Below are positions 9,879 through 16,907 of a DNA stretch of 41,373 bases, in pieces. Under the pieces are notes generated by a model that was not told the origin of the DNA, searched no databases, and saw nothing but the letters and a program-made list of their open reading frames with translations. The translations under genes and the position numbers were made by a program. Source of the DNA: Rhodospirillaceae bacterium. GTDB taxonomy: Bacteria > Pseudomonadota > Alphaproteobacteria > Rhodospirillales > Rhodospirillaceae. The stretch spans positions 1-41,373 of the forward strand of contig JADZAK010000100.1 of NCBI GenBank assembly GCA_020852595.1, written 5' to 3'. The stretch's first letter is position 1. Each line of letters opens with the position of its first letter.

Positions 9879-10289
9879 ATGATCGATATCGTGGACTTCT
9901 TTGGCGGCTCGAAGCGGCGCTCGGCGCTGCAGTTGTTCGACCGCACGCTCTCGGCCCTGGAAGTGAACCCGGCCTATGTCGACGACGGCATGCGCTTCGC
10001 GATCTTCCGCTGGGCACGGGCCGCGGCCGAGAACACCATGTCGGAGAACGGCGTGATCGACGGGCTGATGCGCGAGGCCGCCACGCTGATTTCCTTCTGC
10101 GTGCTGGGACCGGCGGAGACGGAAGCCGAGTGGGGCCCGGCGGTGCGCCAGGAACGCGAGGCGCGCTTCACCGCCGTGATCGAAACCAGTAACGACGAGA
10201 GCTTCGACGTCAAGGTGATCAAGCTGGTGCTGGCCAAAGGGATCGCGGCGCCCGACGTGCTCGAACGCGTCAGCCTGGAACAGGACTAG
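9879..10289 (+). CDS. hypothetical protein, 136 residues
   Basis: I do not recognise this gene. The product starting at ATG 9879 (MIDIVDFF) is soluble, charged and mostly helical in appearance, with no transmembrane segment or cofactor motif. The open frame continues upstream to 9636, but that part is antisense to the 69-residue gene and low in complexity, so I exclude it. TTG 9876 or 9852 are alternative starts, and no strong ribosome-binding site is visible. Its stop codon overlaps the stop of the convergent gene at 10286 by four bases (CTAG). Confidence 0.6.
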   Translation: MIDIVDFFGGSKRRSALQLFDRTLSALEVNPAYVDDGMRFAIFRWARAAAENTMSENGVIDGLMREAATLISFCVLGPAETEAEWGPAVRQEREARFTAVIETSNDESFDVKVIKLVLAKGIAAPDVLERVSLEQD

Positions 10290-10939
10290 GCGCGTTCGAC
10301 CAGCTTGGCCTTCCGGCCGAAGGCGAGCGCGCGGCATTCGACCGCCATGTCGCCGTCCTTGCCCTGCTTGGGCATGCCCATCACCACCGAGGGCGTTTCG
10401 GAGTAGAGGCGATAAACGATCTGCGGCAGCCACACATCCTGGGTCGGCGGCTTCTGGCCGGCCCGCTCGTAGTCCTCGCGGCGCGTGAAAAAGTGCGCCT
10501 GCCCGCCGCCGGCGGAGGGCTTGCCGATGATGACCGCCAGCGGAAAGCCCGGGTGATCGAGATATTCCGCGCCGGCGCGGATGGCGATGCCGCCGTCGCC
10601 CGCCTTGCGCTGGATGGAAATCACGCGCGGCATCGTGCCCATCCCGGCTTCGTCCGTGAACTTCTCGCGCACGGCCGCGGCCGCGATCCAGCGCACGTTT
10701 TCGCGGAAGTATCCTTTTGATTGCGGCTTATTGAAATAACGCCACAGAAAGTCGTAGGCGACGGTCCGGCGCTGTTCGGCGTCCTCGGGGTCGAGCGCGG
10801 CGTATTTTTGCGCGGGCAGGAGGAAGTGATCGGCGGCGTAGTCGAAATCCTCGGGCGACAGATAAGTGAAGCCAAAGCCTTCACCCGGCTGCACTTCCAC
10901 CAGGATCACATCCGGGTGACGACGCGCTGTATCGGCCAC
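10286..10939 (-). CDS. hypothetical protein, 217 residues
   Basis: The function is not recognised. The product starts VADTARRHPDVILVEV and contains aromatic-rich segments (TYLSPEDFDYAADHF, YDFLWRYFNK) and a mid-part that reads like an alpha/beta fold (FPLAVIIGKPSAGGG). It has no signal peptide and no membrane span. I choose GTG 10939, with AAGGGG about eight bases upstream, rather than the upstream extension to 11032, whose composition differs. It converges on the 136-residue gene and diverges from the gene at 11073; the 133-base region between holds a palindromic operator candidate. Confidence 0.65.
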   Translation of the reverse strand: MADTARRHPDVILVEVQPGEGFGFTYLSPEDFDYAADHFLLPAQKYAALDPEDAEQRRTVAYDFLWRYFNKPQSKGYFRENVRWIAAAAVREKFTDEAGMGTMPRVISIQRKAGDGGIAIRAGAEYLDHPGFPLAVIIGKPSAGGGQAHFFTRREDYERAGQKPPTQDVWLPQIVYRLYSETPSVVMGMPKQGKDGDMAVECRALAFGRKAKLVERA

Positions 10940-10968
10940 TTTTCGATCCCCTTTTCGACGCGCGGACA

Positions 10969-11010
10969 ATTGGTTGCGCCGCTTTTGCCATACGGAAACC
11001 CGCAGCCAAT
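10969..11010. repeat. inverted repeat in divergent promoter region
   Basis: ATTGGTTGCG (10969-10978) and CGCAGCCAAT (11001-11010) are inverted with 9 of 10 positions matching and 22 bases between. The arms sit just upstream of the GTG at 10939, where the promoter of the 217-residue gene should be. They could be paired half-sites for a regulator, or a chance repeat in GC-rich DNA. Confidence 0.3.
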
Positions 11011-11048
11011 CGCAACCCGGCGCGCCTATCAAGCGTTACTGATGCAAG

Positions 11049-11072: not shown

Positions 11073-11705
11073 ATGTCTATTGGTGCAACCGCAGTTAAGC
11101 CCTCGGTCGAAGCGAGAGCCGCCGTCGAGCGTTTCCTGAAAGATATGGCTGCGGCCGCCAAGAAAACCTTCCCGGCCTGGCAGAAGAAACTCATCGAAGG
11201 TTTCGACGAATGCGTGCTGCCTTATGACGTGCAGCATGCCTTGATCGATGCTCATCCGATCGACGACTACTACTACGCCGGCGTGGTCGCGCTGGAAGCG
11301 GCAAAGATCCGCCGCCTGTTCGCCCCCGACGAGGCCAGCGAACTCCTCAGCCTGATCGGCGAGAGGGTCGACGCAACCGCCGACCGCAAGGACCGCCTGG
11401 TTTCCGACATGGTGTTCTTCATCATCGGCCGCGTCGAGAACGCGGCGAACGTCGATACGCAGAAGACGCCGCATGACGAGGTGGTGAAAGCGCTGCTGCA
11501 AAAATTGGGCGTCGACCGCGCAGAAGAGACCGTGCACCTGATGCGCGCCATCCTGTTCCGCCACGAACTCGGCGAACCCCTGGCCATGGGTGTGCCGCAA
11601 TGGTGGCAGCTGTTCCGGACCAAGTATGCGCTGGCCGAAAAACACGAAGAGATGTGGACGTCTTCGCCAGCGCCGTCATCCCGGCGGGCAACCGCCATCG
11701 TTTAG
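11073..11705 (+). CDS. hypothetical protein, 210 residues
   Basis: No family is recognised. The protein is predicted soluble and largely helical, with an acidic central part (HPIDDYYYAG, RLFAPDEASELL) and repeated amphipathic helices. No signal peptide, membrane span or catalytic motif is visible. ATG 11073 follows the palindrome at 11051-11070 with no ribosome-binding site, so translation may be leaderless. Upstream is the divergent 217-residue gene, and 63 bases downstream begins the pseudouridine synthase. Confidence 0.7.
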   Translation: MSIGATAVKPSVEARAAVERFLKDMAAAAKKTFPAWQKKLIEGFDECVLPYDVQHALIDAHPIDDYYYAGVVALEAAKIRRLFAPDEASELLSLIGERVDATADRKDRLVSDMVFFIIGRVENAANVDTQKTPHDEVVKALLQKLGVDRAEETVHLMRAILFRHELGEPLAMGVPQWWQLFRTKYALAEKHEEMWTSSPAPSSRRATAIV

Positions 11706-11768: not shown

Positions 11769-12722
11769 ATGTCCATTTCCAAAAAGACCGTCACCGTTCC
11801 CGCCGATGCCGCCGGCGCGCGCCTCGATAAGTGGCTCGCGGGCGCGCTGCCCGAGCTCTCCCGTTCACGCCTGAAGGCGTTGATCGAAGAAGGCGCCGTG
11901 AGTGCCGGGACCGGGGTGCTGCGCGATCCGGCGCAAAAGGTGCAGGCGGGCCAGGCGATCCGTGTCGCGGTCCCGGAGCCGGTGGCCGCCCTGCCCGAGG
12001 CGCAGGAAATGGACCTCGCGGTCGTTTACGAGGACAAGCACCTCATCGTCGTCGACAAGCCCGCGGGTCTCGTCGTGCACCCGGCCGCCGGCAACCTCGA
12101 TCATACATTGGTGAACGCGCTGCTGGCCCACTGCGGACCGTCGCTCGCGGGGATTGGAGGCGTCAAGCGTCCGGGCATCGTGCACCGGATCGACAAGGAT
12201 ACGAGCGGGCTCCTGGTCGTCGCCAAGGACGAACGCACCCACGTCGGCCTCACCGAACAGTTTTCGGCGCACAGCGTGGAGCGCCGCTACGACGCCCTGG
12301 TGTGGGGCGTGCCGCGGCCGGCGGACGGCGTCATCACCGGCAACATCGGCCGCAGTCCGCACAACCGCAAGAAGATGGCGGTGGTGCGCCGCGGGGGCAA
12401 AACGGCGGAGACCGCCTACGAGACCGTCGCCGCCTTCAGCACCGTCGCCGCGCATGTGCAGTGCCGCCTCAAAACCGGGCGCACGCATCAGATCCGCGTC
12501 CATATGACGAGCAAGGGCCATCCGCTGATCGGCGATCCGGTTTATGGCCGCGGCCGGAATGTCGGCCTCGCGCCGCAAGAGGTGCGCGACTTCGCCCGCC
12601 AGGCGCTGCACGCCTCGACGCTGGGGTTCATTCATCCCATCACGGGGAAAGAGCTGAGCTTCGAGAGCGAACTGCCCGACGACATGTCCGCGCTCATGGA
12701 AGCGTTAGACGGCTTTCGTTAG
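11769..12722 (+). CDS. rluD: RluA-family (RluD-like) rRNA pseudouridine synthase
   Basis: The enzyme converts uridine to pseudouridine, in RluD's case in helix 69 of 23S rRNA. The N-terminal part (about 15-75) is an S4 RNA-binding domain (ARLDKWLAGALPELSRSRLKALI). The catalytic domain contains HRIDKDTSGLLVVAKD near residue 140 with the essential Asp, followed by TGRTHQIRVHM near 238. The 317 residues fit RluD better than the shorter RluA or RluC types, but substrate sites cannot be fixed from motifs. ATG 11769 has only a weak ribosome-binding site. The 3' end overlaps the convergent gene at 12705 by 18 bases. Confidence 0.9.
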   Translation: MSISKKTVTVPADAAGARLDKWLAGALPELSRSRLKALIEEGAVSAGTGVLRDPAQKVQAGQAIRVAVPEPVAALPEAQEMDLAVVYEDKHLIVVDKPAGLVVHPAAGNLDHTLVNALLAHCGPSLAGIGGVKRPGIVHRIDKDTSGLLVVAKDERTHVGLTEQFSAHSVERRYDALVWGVPRPADGVITGNIGRSPHNRKKMAVVRRGGKTAETAYETVAAFSTVAAHVQCRLKTGRTHQIRVHMTSKGHPLIGDPVYGRGRNVGLAPQEVRDFARQALHASTLGFIHPITGKELSFESELPDDMSALMEALDGFR

Positions 12723-13211
12723 GCCGTTGGTCAGACTGTCGGGCGGACCCGCCGGCAGGTCACCGGGTTTCCTTTCGGGCTCGTACACGGACTCGACGTC
12801 CGGGCCCCATTTCTGAACCAGTTCCTTCTGCTGATCGCGCATCGCCGCGATGCGCCGCCCCGCCGTCATGGCCATGAAGGTGCTGACCACGGACGGGGTC
12901 GTCGAATAGATGGCCCAGCCGAACATCGCCGCGCCGTAGAAAGACATCCAGGCGAATACGTTCGTGATGATGCCGACGGCGTTCTGAACCGTGTGTCCGT
13001 CAAACCAGAGGTCCGCCAGGAACGGCGCGCAGCCGGCGAGATTCATCGCGCCGACGGTGAGCCCGCCGTAGAAACCCTTGCGGCGCTCCAGCAGAAACGC
13101 GACGCCCGTCGGCAGCAGCGCGACGGCGAGCACGACGATCGTCGGCACGATCATCAGGCCGATCGGAACCGCGATAAGAGCGTAGAGGAAAAAGTTGCTG
13201 CGTTTTTTCAT
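12705..13211 (-). CDS. three-span membrane protein coupled to pseudokinase
   Basis: This 168-residue protein has a basic N-terminus (MKKR) and three hydrophobic segments at about 7-41, 46-70 and 78-102. A soluble, charged tail of about 65 residues (AGRRIAAMRDQQKELVQKWG onward) is probably cytoplasmic by the positive-inside rule. I recognise no family. Its GGATC ribosome-binding site overlaps the TGA of the upstream pseudokinase gene with five bases between the genes, so the two are translationally coupled and probably act together at the inner membrane. The 3' end overlaps the convergent pseudouridine synthase gene. Confidence 0.75.
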   Translation of the reverse strand: MKKRSNFFLYALIAVPIGLMIVPTIVVLAVALLPTGVAFLLERRKGFYGGLTVGAMNLAGCAPFLADLWFDGHTVQNAVGIITNVFAWMSFYGAAMFGWAIYSTTPSVVSTFMAMTAGRRIAAMRDQQKELVQKWGPDVESVYEPERKPGDLPAGPPDSLTNGLTKAV

Positions 13212-13216
13212 GATCC

Positions 13217-15328
13217 TCAGAACAACTTTCCGAGCATGATGAAAAGATACGTGACGAACATGATGAAGCCCGCGCCCGCGGCGCCGGCCTGACGGCCGGT
13301 CAGGATCGCCGACTCCTGGCGGTCGACCTGGCCGTGCTCGAGGTCGTAGACCAGCTTTTCAGCCGCGGCGTATTCGGCCTTGGCCCACGAGAAACCTTCG
13401 CCGTCCTTCTGGCGTTCTTCGGGGTTGTCGAGGTAGTTGAACATCTCCGCGAGGTTGCCCTTGCGGATGAGCTTCGGCAGTTCCTTCTCGATTTCCTTGC
13501 GTTTAACCCGGTTCTGGTAGCTGTTCACCACCGGCCCCATCAGGCCGCCCACCCATTGGGCGAGACCGTAGAGCGCCTCGGGGCCGAGACGCCACTGCAC
13601 GATGGCGAGCACCGAGAGCATGCCGATGGTGGCGCGGTCCGGGCGCTGGTCGTTCATGGAATCGATCTGGCTGCCGGTACCCTTGGCGTAGCGGGCGCGC
13701 AGGAAGGCCGCGATATGGCGGTCCACCGGCCACACCTTGATGTTGGCGGTTTTTGCCACGACATCGAGCGCCGGCAGAACTCCCTTCACTTCCATCACAT
13801 ACTGATCGGCGATCAGCGGGCTCATGCACGGCTGCCACTCGTTCAGTTCGTAAACGCAGCGTTCGATGCCGCCGCCGGAGTTCTGGTCCTTGAGGTAGTT
13901 GCGCAGTTCGCGGAACACGCCCTCGTATTGCTGATTCTCGGCGATGAACTTGGTTTGGGCGATGATCCAATAGCGCCACAGTTCGCGCGTGATGAAATCG
14001 GTGAAGGCCTGCAATTTTTGCTTACGCAGCATCGCCACCGCCAACGACGAGCCGAAGCCCTCGATGAACAGACGGAAGTCGCGATAGCGGATCGGCGCAC
14101 GCGGATCGAGCAGCATGAGCACGCGGGCGATGATGATGTCGTCCGCCTCGCCCTTGCCGAGCGCGGCGCCGGTGCCCTTGATGGCGCTGGCGATACTGTC
14201 GGCAAGATCGTTGAGTTCAAGGCCGCGGCGGATCCACACCTCGAGCGTGCCGTCGCTGATGATCGACAGCGCCTTGTCCCAGTTGTTGTACATCGCGTAC
14301 GACAAGGGACGGATGGAGTGGAATTCCATCTCGGCGAACCGCAAGGGGCGCTGCGACTGGGGTTCCGACCTCGCCTGGATGGGCGTAAGACGCTTGCCGT
14401 TCAGCCACAGATCGATGTTGTTCGGCAGCCAGCGCTGCTCGGCGTCGTCGGTGAGCATGCCGCGCAGGCATTCGATCAGCGCCATGGGCACGCGTTCGTC
14501 GCCGACGAGAGTCGCGTAGGATCCGATCTGGATCTTGCGGCGGATGAGTTCCCAATCGGGGACGCCCGCAACCGGATTTCGCCCCAGCGCGATCATGAGG
14601 ACCGAGGCGCCGAAGGCATACATGTCGTCGGCATAGGTGCCCGCGCCGCGGCCCGAAGGCTGCGCCATGCCCGATTCAATCGTCTCAAGCAGGACAGGCT
14701 GATCGTGCGCGGGCACGGAGGTCACGCAGTCGCCGAGCACGATCTTCGTTTTCTGCTCGTCGATGTAATAGAGATTGTCGGGCCGGATCGCGCGGTGCGT
14801 AACGCCCTTCAAACCAAGCTCGATCAAACCTTCGGCGATCGGCTTGATGACCGTGCGCGCGAAGACGTGGTCGGGAATGCGCTTCATCGATCCGAAATGC
14901 GCGTCCATCACCTTGCCGCCGAGCGGACGGTGATAAATCACGATCACGCATTTGCGTTCGAGGAGCGGCCACTCGGCGACGCCCCAATCGACCATGTGAA
15001 GCACGGCGGGAATTTCGAGCCCCTTGAGGGTGCGCATGACCGACACGCGCGCGGGCATATCGGGGCGGCACACGAGCGCATACAGGGGGCGCCCTTCCTG
15101 TTTGCGGTCGGCCACTTCGTAGGCGAGCGCGTTCGGCATATCGAGACTGGGCAGCGGGCGGTCGCAGAAGATCGTGAAGCGATCACGAACGATGATGTAG
15201 CTGCCGCTTGGAGACGAGGGTGCGCCCACCGTCTCCGGGCTTGGAGGCGGCGGCGTCGGGGCCGCTGCTGGCGCGGCCGGGGGCGCCTTTTCTGGCGCCG
15301 GTTTGAGATCCGCAGCCGCTTCGGCCAT
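13217..15328 (-). CDS. tail-anchored degenerate protein kinase (pseudokinase)
   Basis: The 703-residue protein starts with a Pro/Ala-rich stretch (1-42), then a region resembling a Ser/Thr kinase fold (about 43-310). The catalytic loop reads His178-Arg-Ala-Ile-Arg-Pro-Asp-Asn185, so the HRD aspartate is Ala180 and the loop lysine is Arg182. The DFG site reads LGD (198-200). The F-helix Asp (ADDMYAFG near 235) and a subdomain-XI-like Arg (QRW near 299) remain. I infer a pseudokinase. A long helical region of unknown fold (about 320-680) leads to one C-terminal membrane span (about 684-702), consistent with tail anchoring. ATG 15328 follows AGGATC. It is coupled to the membrane protein gene at 12705-13211. 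Confidence 0.82.
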   Translation of the reverse strand: MAEAAADLKPAPEKAPPAAPAAAPTPPPPSPETVGAPSSPSGSYIIVRDRFTIFCDRPLPSLDMPNALAYEVADRKQEGRPLYALVCRPDMPARVSVMRTLKGLEIPAVLHMVDWGVAEWPLLERKCVIVIYHRPLGGKVMDAHFGSMKRIPDHVFARTVIKPIAEGLIELGLKGVTHRAIRPDNLYYIDEQKTKIVLGDCVTSVPAHDQPVLLETIESGMAQPSGRGAGTYADDMYAFGASVLMIALGRNPVAGVPDWELIRRKIQIGSYATLVGDERVPMALIECLRGMLTDDAEQRWLPNNIDLWLNGKRLTPIQARSEPQSQRPLRFAEMEFHSIRPLSYAMYNNWDKALSIISDGTLEVWIRRGLELNDLADSIASAIKGTGAALGKGEADDIIIARVLMLLDPRAPIRYRDFRLFIEGFGSSLAVAMLRKQKLQAFTDFITRELWRYWIIAQTKFIAENQQYEGVFRELRNYLKDQNSGGGIERCVYELNEWQPCMSPLIADQYVMEVKGVLPALDVVAKTANIKVWPVDRHIAAFLRARYAKGTGSQIDSMNDQRPDRATIGMLSVLAIVQWRLGPEALYGLAQWVGGLMGPVVNSYQNRVKRKEIEKELPKLIRKGNLAEMFNYLDNPEERQKDGEGFSWAKAEYAAAEKLVYDLEHGQVDRQESAILTGRQAGAAGAGFIMFVTYLFIMLGKLF

Positions 15329-15617: not shown

Positions 15618-16907
15618 TTAATCCGCGAAGGGATCGCGAACCAGGATGGTGTCTTCGCGCTGGGGGCTGGTGGACAGGAGGGCCACGGGGGCTTCGATGA
15701 GTTCTTCCACCCGGCGGATGTACTTGATGGCGTCCGCGGGCAGCTGGGCCCAGCTGCGGGCGCCCTGGGTGGAGGTCTGCCAGCCCGGCAGGGTCTCGTA
15801 GATGGGCTTCACGGCCGCCTGATCGCTCATGGAGGACGGGAGGCGGCGGATGCGCTGGCCGTTCAGCTCGTAGGCCACGCAGATCTTCAGTTCGGCCAGG
15901 GTGTCGAGCACGTCCAGCTTGGTGAAGGCGATGCCGTCGATGCCGCCGATCTTGATGGCCTGGCGGACCATGACGGCGTCGAACCAGCCGCAGCGGCGCT
16001 TACGGCCGGTGACCGTGCCGAACTCGCGGCCGCGCTCGCCGATCAGCTGGCCCACCTCGTCCGTCAGTTCGGTCGGAAACGGCCCGGAGCCGACGCGGGT
16101 GGTGTAGGCCTTGGTGATGCCGAGCACATAACCGACGCTGCCCGGGCCGATGCCCGAACCGGCGGCGGCCTGGCCCGAAACGGTGTTGGACGAGGTCACG
16201 AACGGATAGGTGCCGTGATCGACATCGAGCATGGCGCCCTGGGCGCCTTCGAACAGCACGCGGGCGCGGTTCCGGCGGGCGTCGGCCATGATCTCCCACA
16301 CCGGAACGGCGAAGGGCAGGATCTTCGGCGCGACGCCTTTCAGCTGCGCGAGCACTTCGGCGCCGTCGATCTCGGCGTGGCCCACGCCGCGCAGGAGCGC
16401 GTTGTGGTGGACCAGGAGGCGCTCGACCTTGGCCGCGAGGGCCGGAGGATCGGCGAGGTCGCAGACCCGAATGGCGCGGCGCGCGGTTTTGTCTTCGTAG
16501 GCCGGGCCGATGCCCCTGCCCGTCGTGCCGATCTGCGTGGCGCCGGCGGCGGCTTCGCGCGCCTGGTCGAGGGTCCGGTGGAGCGGCAGGATGAGCACGG
16601 CATTGTCGGCGAGCTTGAGCACGTCGGGCGTGATCTTAAGACCCTGTTCGCCGACGCGCCTGATCTCGTCGAGGAAGGCCCAGGGATCGACGACCACGCC
16701 GTTACCGATAATGGACGGCTTGCCGCGCACGACCCCCGACGGAAGCAGGGAAAGCTTGTAGGTGGTGTCGCCGATGACGAGGGTATGGCCGGCGTTGTGG
16801 CCGCCCTGGAAGCGCACGACCATATCGGCGCGTTCCGACAGCCAGTCGACGATCTTGCCTTTGCCTTCGTCGCCCCACTGAGAGCCGACAACCGCGACGT
16901 TACCCAT
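15618..16907 (-). CDS. purA: adenylosuccinate synthetase
   Basis: PurA joins IMP and aspartate using GTP to give adenylosuccinate, the first committed step to AMP. The P-loop [11 protein letters not shown] is at residues 8-18 with the catalytic Asp13. GGHNAGHT follows near 38-45 and [13 protein letters not shown] near 129. At 429 residues the protein is full length. ATG 16907 is certain from the N-terminal motif. It lies downstream of a small membrane protein and serA on the same strand, with a GC-rich hairpin in its leader. Confidence 0.97.

What the first reader, a model, noticed from the sequence alone, without database searches (positions are those of the whole stretch)
12705..15328. Coupled pseudokinase and membrane protein: candidate undescribed signalling pair
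Seen: a 703-residue protein has a kinase-like region whose HRD reads HRA and whose DFG reads LGD, while the structural Asp of helix F and a subdomain-XI-like Arg remain. It ends in a single C-terminal span. The next gene encodes a three-span protein, and its ribosome-binding site overlaps the pseudokinase stop. Inference: a cytoplasmic pseudokinase tail-anchored in the inner membrane together with a dedicated partner. It may sense ATP or a ligand or act as a scaffold. The 360-residue middle region has no fold I recognise.
Basis: partly seen in the sequence, partly recalled or inferred. Interest (0 to 1): 0.75.

Follow-up and report, generated by a model that had tools for sequence, protein, structure and literature searches.

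The report
Dead kinase with membrane partner
A bacterial protein that has the shape of a protein kinase but lacks the residues a kinase needs to work is anchored in the membrane and inherited together with a small membrane protein of unknown function, so the two are probably parts of one machine that could now be tested.

Summary
The 703-aa protein (13217-15328, -) is a pseudokinase by every sequence test made here. AlphaFold (pLDDT 88.7) and Foldseek (PknB-like) give a kinase fold. In 122 relatives under 90% identity, the HRD Asp is present in 0, the beta3 Lys in 1 and an intact DFG in 0, while the APE Glu, helix-F Asp and subdomain-XI Arg are kept in 122, 122 and 121. One correction: the DFG Asp is not lost; the motif reads D-C-V. 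A confident helical domain (pLDDT 93.6) without PDB match, a 67-residue helix and one C-terminal span follow. The 168-aa membrane protein (12705-13211, -) is its companion: in 289 class genomes both occur in 100, neither in 187, each alone in 1. In ten genomes the genes lie on different contigs, yet both persist. Best reading: a non-catalytic, membrane-tethered scaffold in complex with the partner. It fails tested features of the DLHK, GLW, ActPs2, DYD and CP1 families of PMC12599244; ActPs1 and ActPs3 were not compared in full. Complex formation and function are untested; ligand sensing is the main rival.

The parts
13217..15328 (-). Pseudokinase gene, 703 aa, ATG start, TGA stop
   Evidence: matched in 53 of 61 genomes (own genome included; G022 and G043 by fragments only) and in 101 of 289 class genomes, of which G066 is only an ordinary-kinase match
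14393..15199 (-). Kinase-fold domain, residues about 44-312
   Evidence: AlphaFold; Foldseek (PknB chain 2fum_D, TMt 0.77); phmmer
14774..14797 (-). Catalytic loop HRAIRPDN, residues 178-185: catalytic Asp replaced by Ala; Arg182 and Asn185 kept
   Evidence: residue 180 is Asp in 0 of 122; N185 in 120, R182 in 113 of 122
14723..14737 (-). DFG-equivalent within LGDCV, residues 198-202: Asp kept, Phe and Gly lost
   Evidence: register: residue 200 D 78, E 32, P 8, Q 4; C201 in 103; residue 202 is Gly in 1 of 122
13424..14377 (-). Helical domain, residues about 318-635
   Evidence: AlphaFold (pLDDT 93.6); no PDB match at E 0.001, best E 0.86
13289..13423 (-). Stalk part (636-680) of one continuous C-terminal helix, residues 636-702
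13220..13288 (-). C-terminal membrane span, residues about 681-703
   Evidence: family-averaged hydropathy 2.4 at residue 690
13212..13219 (-). Junction: stop TGA and GGATC before the partner ATG; ribosome-binding-like TGAGGA overlaps the stop
   Evidence: sequence printed
12705..13211 (-). Partner membrane protein, 168 aa
   Evidence: no Pfam, NCBIfam or PADLOC match
15618..16907 (-). purA (adenylosuccinate synthetase), conserved upstream neighbour
   Evidence: Pfam E 8.8e-174; upstream on the same strand in 68 of 80 named loci
11769..12722 (+). rluD-like pseudouridine synthase, convergent neighbour; its end overlaps the partner's end by 18 nt
   Evidence: Pfam; rluD in 48, rpoH or rluD in 50 of 80 named loci

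Best explanation
The two genes encode a membrane complex built round a dead kinase. The cytoplasmic kinase fold cannot do normal phosphotransfer and serves as a binding platform; the helical domain adds a second surface; a long helix carries both to the inner membrane, where the single span docks with the small multi-span partner. Shown by computation: kinase fold, loss of the catalytic Asp and beta3 Lys in the whole sampled family, a C-terminal span, near-perfect co-occurrence of the two genes even when they are unlinked, purifying selection. Inferred: a physical complex, the scaffold role, the cytoplasmic side, the absence of catalysis. Not known: what it binds and which process it serves.
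For: Fold. Catalytic residues: HRD Asp in 0 of 122, Lys at the beta3 position in 1 of 122, D-F-G in 0 of 122, while APE Glu, helix-F Asp and subdomain-XI Arg are kept in 122, 122 and 121 of 122. Co-occurrence in 289 class genomes: 100 both, 187 neither, G066 pseudokinase query only, G063 partner only. In 61 close genomes: 50 both, 8 neither, 3 pseudokinase only. Unlinked yet both kept: all 8 split genomes looked up, in which the two genes lie on different contigs with one partner match and one full-length pseudokinase match each, and class genomes G246 and G317. In 7 of the 8 the pseudokinase is still by purA and in 2 of the 8 (L199, L201) the partner is still by rpoH/rluD, as if a rearrangement had parted them. 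No obvious kinase to regulate: the own genome has one Pkinase match, under the cut-off and UbiB-like, and no PF13672 phosphatase; 35 (at most 39) of 100 pair-bearing genomes have another Pkinase match over the cut-off. dN/dS 0.056-0.151.
Against: No interaction, localisation or phenotype data, and no complex was modelled. Where the genes are adjacent, one deletion removes both, and the Fisher value ignores relatedness; the weight rests on ten unlinked genomes, at least six of them from one group (Magnetospirillum and near kin), so the number of separate events is small. The pocket keeps R182, N185 and D/E200, more than a pure scaffold needs. Four second copies (L172, L179, L182, L183) have no partner next to them. 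The relatedness of the first helical units to an intact kinase shows that this module is not peculiar to the pair.
Confidence: 0.55

Rival explanations
1. Ligand sensor: the altered pocket binds a nucleotide or another anion without using it up, and binding changes the state of the membrane partner. This can be true together with the scaffold reading.
For: Residues at kinase-pocket positions stay conserved although catalysis is gone: H178 116, R182 113, N185 120, D/E200 110, and also R94 116 of 122. The DLHK family, with an Arg in the catalytic loop and no beta3 Lys, is modelled with ATP by its authors (PMC12599244 section 13, read).
Against: No glycine-rich loop seen in the alignment and no beta3 Lys.
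Confidence: 0.25
2. Atypical enzyme: the kinase fold does another reaction, as SelO (AMP transfer) or SidJ (glutamylation) do.
For: Conserved pocket positions; precedent in PMC12599244 section 4 part 1 (read).
Against: SelO and SidJ keep a Lys at the beta3 motif in Table 1 of that paper; here it is missing in 121 of 122.
Confidence: 0.08
3. Role tied to purine or histidine synthesis, because purA and hisZ lie just upstream.
For: purA upstream in 68 and hisZ found in 56 of 80 named loci; also in Azospirillum thermophilum.
Against: The partner has left purA in the split genomes and is still kept; Azospirillum ramasamyi has the pair with no purA in the 5 kb on either side; rluD or rpoH is found in 50 of 80 loci on the other side, so synteny alone is a weak guide.
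Confidence: 0.08
4. Regulator of an active Hanks-type kinase, as many eukaryotic pseudokinases are (recalled).
For: General precedent only; 35 of 100 pair-bearing genomes do have another Pkinase match over the cut-off.
Against: At least 61 of 100 pair-bearing genomes have none over the cut-off, nor has the own genome.
Confidence: 0.04

Closest known systems
DLHK kinases of O'Boyle et al. 2025 (PMC12599244)
   Same: No beta3 Lys, a family Arg in the catalytic loop, conserved Asn (section 13, read). Rhizobium megaplasmid proteins L240/L241, which I take for DLHK-like because of HRD kept, GFG and a helicase fusion (inference), share C-lobe and first post-kinase module with this family
   Different: DLHK keep the HRD Asp, lack membrane spans and are often fused to helicases; this family has HRA, a C-terminal span and no helicase
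GLW pseudokinases (same paper, whole short section seen as a passage)
   Different: GLW in place of HRD (0 of 122 here) and poly-Leu at beta3; here HR[A/S/G]-[I/V]-R-P-x-N and A-L-[V/I]
EssB/YukC of type VII secretion (same paper, section 4 part 1 read)
   Same: Membrane-anchored pseudokinase that scaffolds a membrane machine
   Different: Found in Firmicutes, other motifs and partners; EssB was not among the 60 PDB sequences shown by phmmer and no direct comparison was made
   Same: Profile positions 124-455, that is C-lobe plus both halves of the post-kinase module, align at E 1e-26
   Different: Intact HRD and DFG; Pfam Pkinase E 5.4e-36

Membership tests
Protein kinase fold | Two-lobed kinase fold | tested here: met
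   Pfam Pkinase is under its cut-off for the window protein (E 0.11) and matched at E<=1 by 38 of 40 rows of A1, in which the window protein stands twice
Protein kinase fold | Structural core residues APE Glu, helix-F Asp, subdomain-XI Arg (names recalled) | tested here: met
   122, 122, 121 of 122
Active Hanks-type kinase | HRD catalytic Asp | tested here: not met
   0 of 122
Active Hanks-type kinase | beta3 (VAIK) Lys | tested here: not met
   1 of 122
Active Hanks-type kinase | DFG motif | tested here: not met
   0 of 122 intact; Asp or Glu kept in 110 of 122
Active Hanks-type kinase | Phosphotransfer activity | not testable with these tools
   needs an assay
DLHK | HRD Asp kept | tested here: not met
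DLHK | No transmembrane region | tested here: not met
   span at about 681-703
DLHK | Helicase or DNA2 fusion (common, not stated as universal) | tested here: not met
   no such Pfam match
GLW | GLW in place of HRD | tested here: not met
   0 of 122
GLW | C-terminal transmembrane region | tested here: met
ActPs2 | HRN and Arg at beta3 | tested here: not met
   Asn at 180 in 5, Arg at 86 in 1 of 122; the window protein has A and V
DYD | Arg at beta3 and DYD motif | tested here: not met
   V at beta3, DCV at the DFG place
CP1 | No transmembrane region, linked to COG3899 | tested here: not met
   span present; COG3899 itself was not searched
ActPs1 and ActPs3 | Their own motif and deletion patterns | not tested
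   only passages of the ActPs3 section and Table 1 were seen
EssB/YukC | Type VII secretion partners | not tested
   no search for these genes was made

The most novel reading that the evidence does not exclude
An unnamed, mostly vertically inherited two-protein membrane complex of Rhodospirillaceae and other Alphaproteobacteria, in which an Arg-lined pseudokinase pocket reads a small ligand and a new helical domain passes the state on to a dedicated membrane subunit: a sensor made from a dead kinase, with no phosphorylation in it.
Probability: 0.25. Interest if true: 0.75.

Novelty: new variant of a known kind. Interest (0 to 1): 0.58.

Why it matters
About a third of the sampled genomes of the class carry the pair (100 of 289, at least 90% complete), and two annotated Azospirillum records call it 'serine/threonine protein kinase' and 'hypothetical protein'. 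The kinase label is misleading. A conserved pseudokinase with a dedicated partner, in most genomes one copy, in hosts such as Magnetospirillum and Azospirillum would let one test what bacterial pseudokinases do.

Tried and rejected
Internal repeats in the helical domain: hhalign puts the two W units (W365, W454) in register, but weakly (P 0.02-0.05), and another pair of segments scored as well (0.048); kept as a hint only. Designed Armadillo hits of the A4 profile (E down to 3.5e-7) rest mostly on about 25 residues and were set aside as repeat-inflated; the fold search did not bear them out. Pfam DUF6568 (E 0.093) and other Pfam matches in one to three of the 40 rows were taken as noise. A defence role was considered because of MAD6, PD-T4-6 and MkoA matches; rejected, since these cover the kinase region (MkoA reaches residue 353), and the locus is syntenic in the named loci and mostly single-copy. 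A magnetosome link: the one kinase passage in the M. gryphiswaldense screen (PMC7676999, passage seen) concerns histidine kinases; its supplements were not read. Papers: PMC12599244 abstract and outline, passages, sections 4 part 1, 7, 12, 13, 14; all others only as search listings. Absence from print: eight answered searches (14 of 14 papers listed; 20 of 127; 1 of 1; 20 of 624; 10 of 57; 12 of 43; 87, none found; 10 of 17) listed no paper recognisably about this pair; more than that is not shown. A structure of the partner or of the complex was not modelled, because both prediction jobs went to the pseudokinase.
Full report
Observation. The two ORFs are at the stated coordinates on the minus strand. 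The stop of the 703-aa gene and the ATG of the 168-aa gene are 5 nt apart, and TGAGGA overlaps the stop. A 684-aa ORF lies antisense on the plus strand; conservation and selection support the minus-strand gene. For five close pairs dN/dS is 0.062-0.118 (pseudokinase) and 0.056-0.151 (partner).

Fold. Pfam sees Pkinase only under its cut-off (E 0.11); phmmer against PDB sequences finds kinases at E 3e-4. AlphaFold on 40 rows (39 distinct) gives pLDDT 88.7 and pTM 0.82; Foldseek finds kinases from E 1.4e-8, for example PknB 2fum_D with TMt 0.77 over 277 columns. After the kinase come a helical domain (about 318-635) and one helix from 636 to 702. The helical part with its helix, modelled alone on 105 rows, has pLDDT 93.6; Foldseek found no PDB chain at E 0.001, best 0.86. 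No library of predicted cellular proteins was searched, so 'new fold' is not shown.

Motifs. Of 155 stop-free frames of at least 1900 nt, 122 remained under 90% identity; second copies are among them. HRD Asp position: A 86, S 16, G 7, N 5, E 2, C 2, and K, Q, M, R one each; D none. Beta3 position: V 60, I 46, L 9, A 4, M, K, R one each. DFG Asp position: D 78, E 32, P 8, Q 4, followed by C in 103; no intact DFG. Asn185 120, Arg182 113, Arg94 116, His178 116, Glu215 122, Asp235 122, Arg299 121. The DFG register comes from the profile alignment to the intact kinase L235. So the sampled family as a whole, not only this protein, lacks the catalytic residues.

Relatives. The pseudokinase is matched in 53 of 61 close genomes, own genome included, two of them by fragments, and in 101 of 289 class genomes. 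Named carriers include Caenispirillum, Roseospira, Rhodospira, Pararhodospirillum, Magnetospirillum and Telmatospirillum (the 80 best of 281 confirmed places) and five Azospirillum plasmid records; from these I take the class for Alphaproteobacteria. In 397 phylum genomes, for which only the two best candidates per genome were scored, the best match outside the class is partial (E 5e-23, profile 110-397) and the rest of the listed ones cover the kinase region or part of it (the list is cut at the weak end). That best one, L235, has intact HRD and DFG and shares the post-kinase module to profile position 455; Rhizobium megaplasmid proteins of about 2100 aa with helicase and nuclease domains share it to position 401. 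In a FastTree of 60 rows and 277 columns the 54 pseudokinases group apart from these six (rooted on L235, support values not examined).

Partner. A2 holds 43 partners with invariant P34, N57, G98, P106, W135. No Pfam, NCBIfam or PADLOC match and no PDB relative better than E 0.46. Over the 43 rows the N-tails carry on average 5.4 K/R and 0.7 D/E, and the loop 66-82 is acidic, which favours both ends inside (inference).

Pairing. The partner profile found 101 of 289 class genomes; 100 are those of the pseudokinase, and G066 (ordinary kinases only) and G063 (weak, E 4.5e-5) are the misfits. Some of these genomes had given rows to A2; the pseudokinase query was the window protein alone. In 61 close genomes: 50 both, 8 neither, 3 pseudokinase only; of these G018 and G059 break off at a contig end and G022 has only a 55-residue match. 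Of 80 named loci 71 hold the partner; the nine others are L113, cut by its contig end, and eight split pairs. In those 8 genomes and 2 linked controls the partner was found once in 10 of 10 and a full-length pseudokinase once in 10 of 10, beside weak kinase-region matches in five of them. The pseudokinase stays by purA in 7 of the 8, Roseospira visakhapatnamensis (L116) being the exception; the partner lies by rpoH and rluD in 2 of the 8 (L199, L201), while the stretches of about 3.4 kb round the other six show neither. Taking all loci, redundant ones included, 144 of 169 pseudokinase frames have a partner match downstream. I looked into 16 of the other loci: seven split pairs, five with the partner present but a broken or over-long frame (L114, L137, L140, L161, L175), and four second copies with no partner adjacent (L172, L179, L182, L183).

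Setting. In the 80 named loci purA lies upstream in 68, hisZ is found in 56, and rpoH or rluD in 50; many loci are cut. The own genome has one Pkinase match, under the cut-off, in a 533-aa ORF that I take for UbiB from its sequence (recalled), and no PF13672 match. In 289 class genomes 89 have a Pkinase match over the cut-off; the listed places show 85 of them, and 35 of the 100 pair-bearing genomes have such a match outside the pseudokinase, so at most 39. Some of these may be UbiB-like.

Judgement. The pseudokinase state and the pairing are well shown at sequence level. That the two form a scaffold complex is the best inference. Ligand sensing is the main rival, and both may be true. The closest published family is DLHK, whose tested features (HRD Asp, no span) are not met, so I do not file it there; GLW, ActPs2, DYD and CP1 fail a tested feature as well.

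Noticed in passing
L235:491-3127 (-); L240:7410-13823 (+); L241:7380-13649 (+): The post-kinase helical module (window residues about 318-480) is shared with an intact kinase and with giant kinase-helicase-nuclease proteins; L240 also matches anti-phage models, and the Pfam scan of L235 and L240 gave the module no family.
   Followed up: partly
titles of L092-L110: 11 of the 80 named loci, all among the closest relatives, carry the GenBank label 'Candidatus Marinimicrobia', although their neighbours in the list are labelled Rhodospirillaceae or Alphaproteobacteria; the labels look wrong.
   Followed up: no
window 11073-11705 (+) and 10286-11032 (-): Two ORFs (210 and 248 aa) without Pfam match recur beyond rluD in 18 and 14 of the 80 named loci.
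   Followed up: no
L175, L176, L180, L181, L184: Five of the eight sequences with Pro in place of the DFG Asp are second or third copies in their genomes, which suggests that extra copies drift further.
   Followed up: partly
G072 and G186: Two genomes of one genus have four partner-family matches each but a single pseudokinase match.
   Followed up: no
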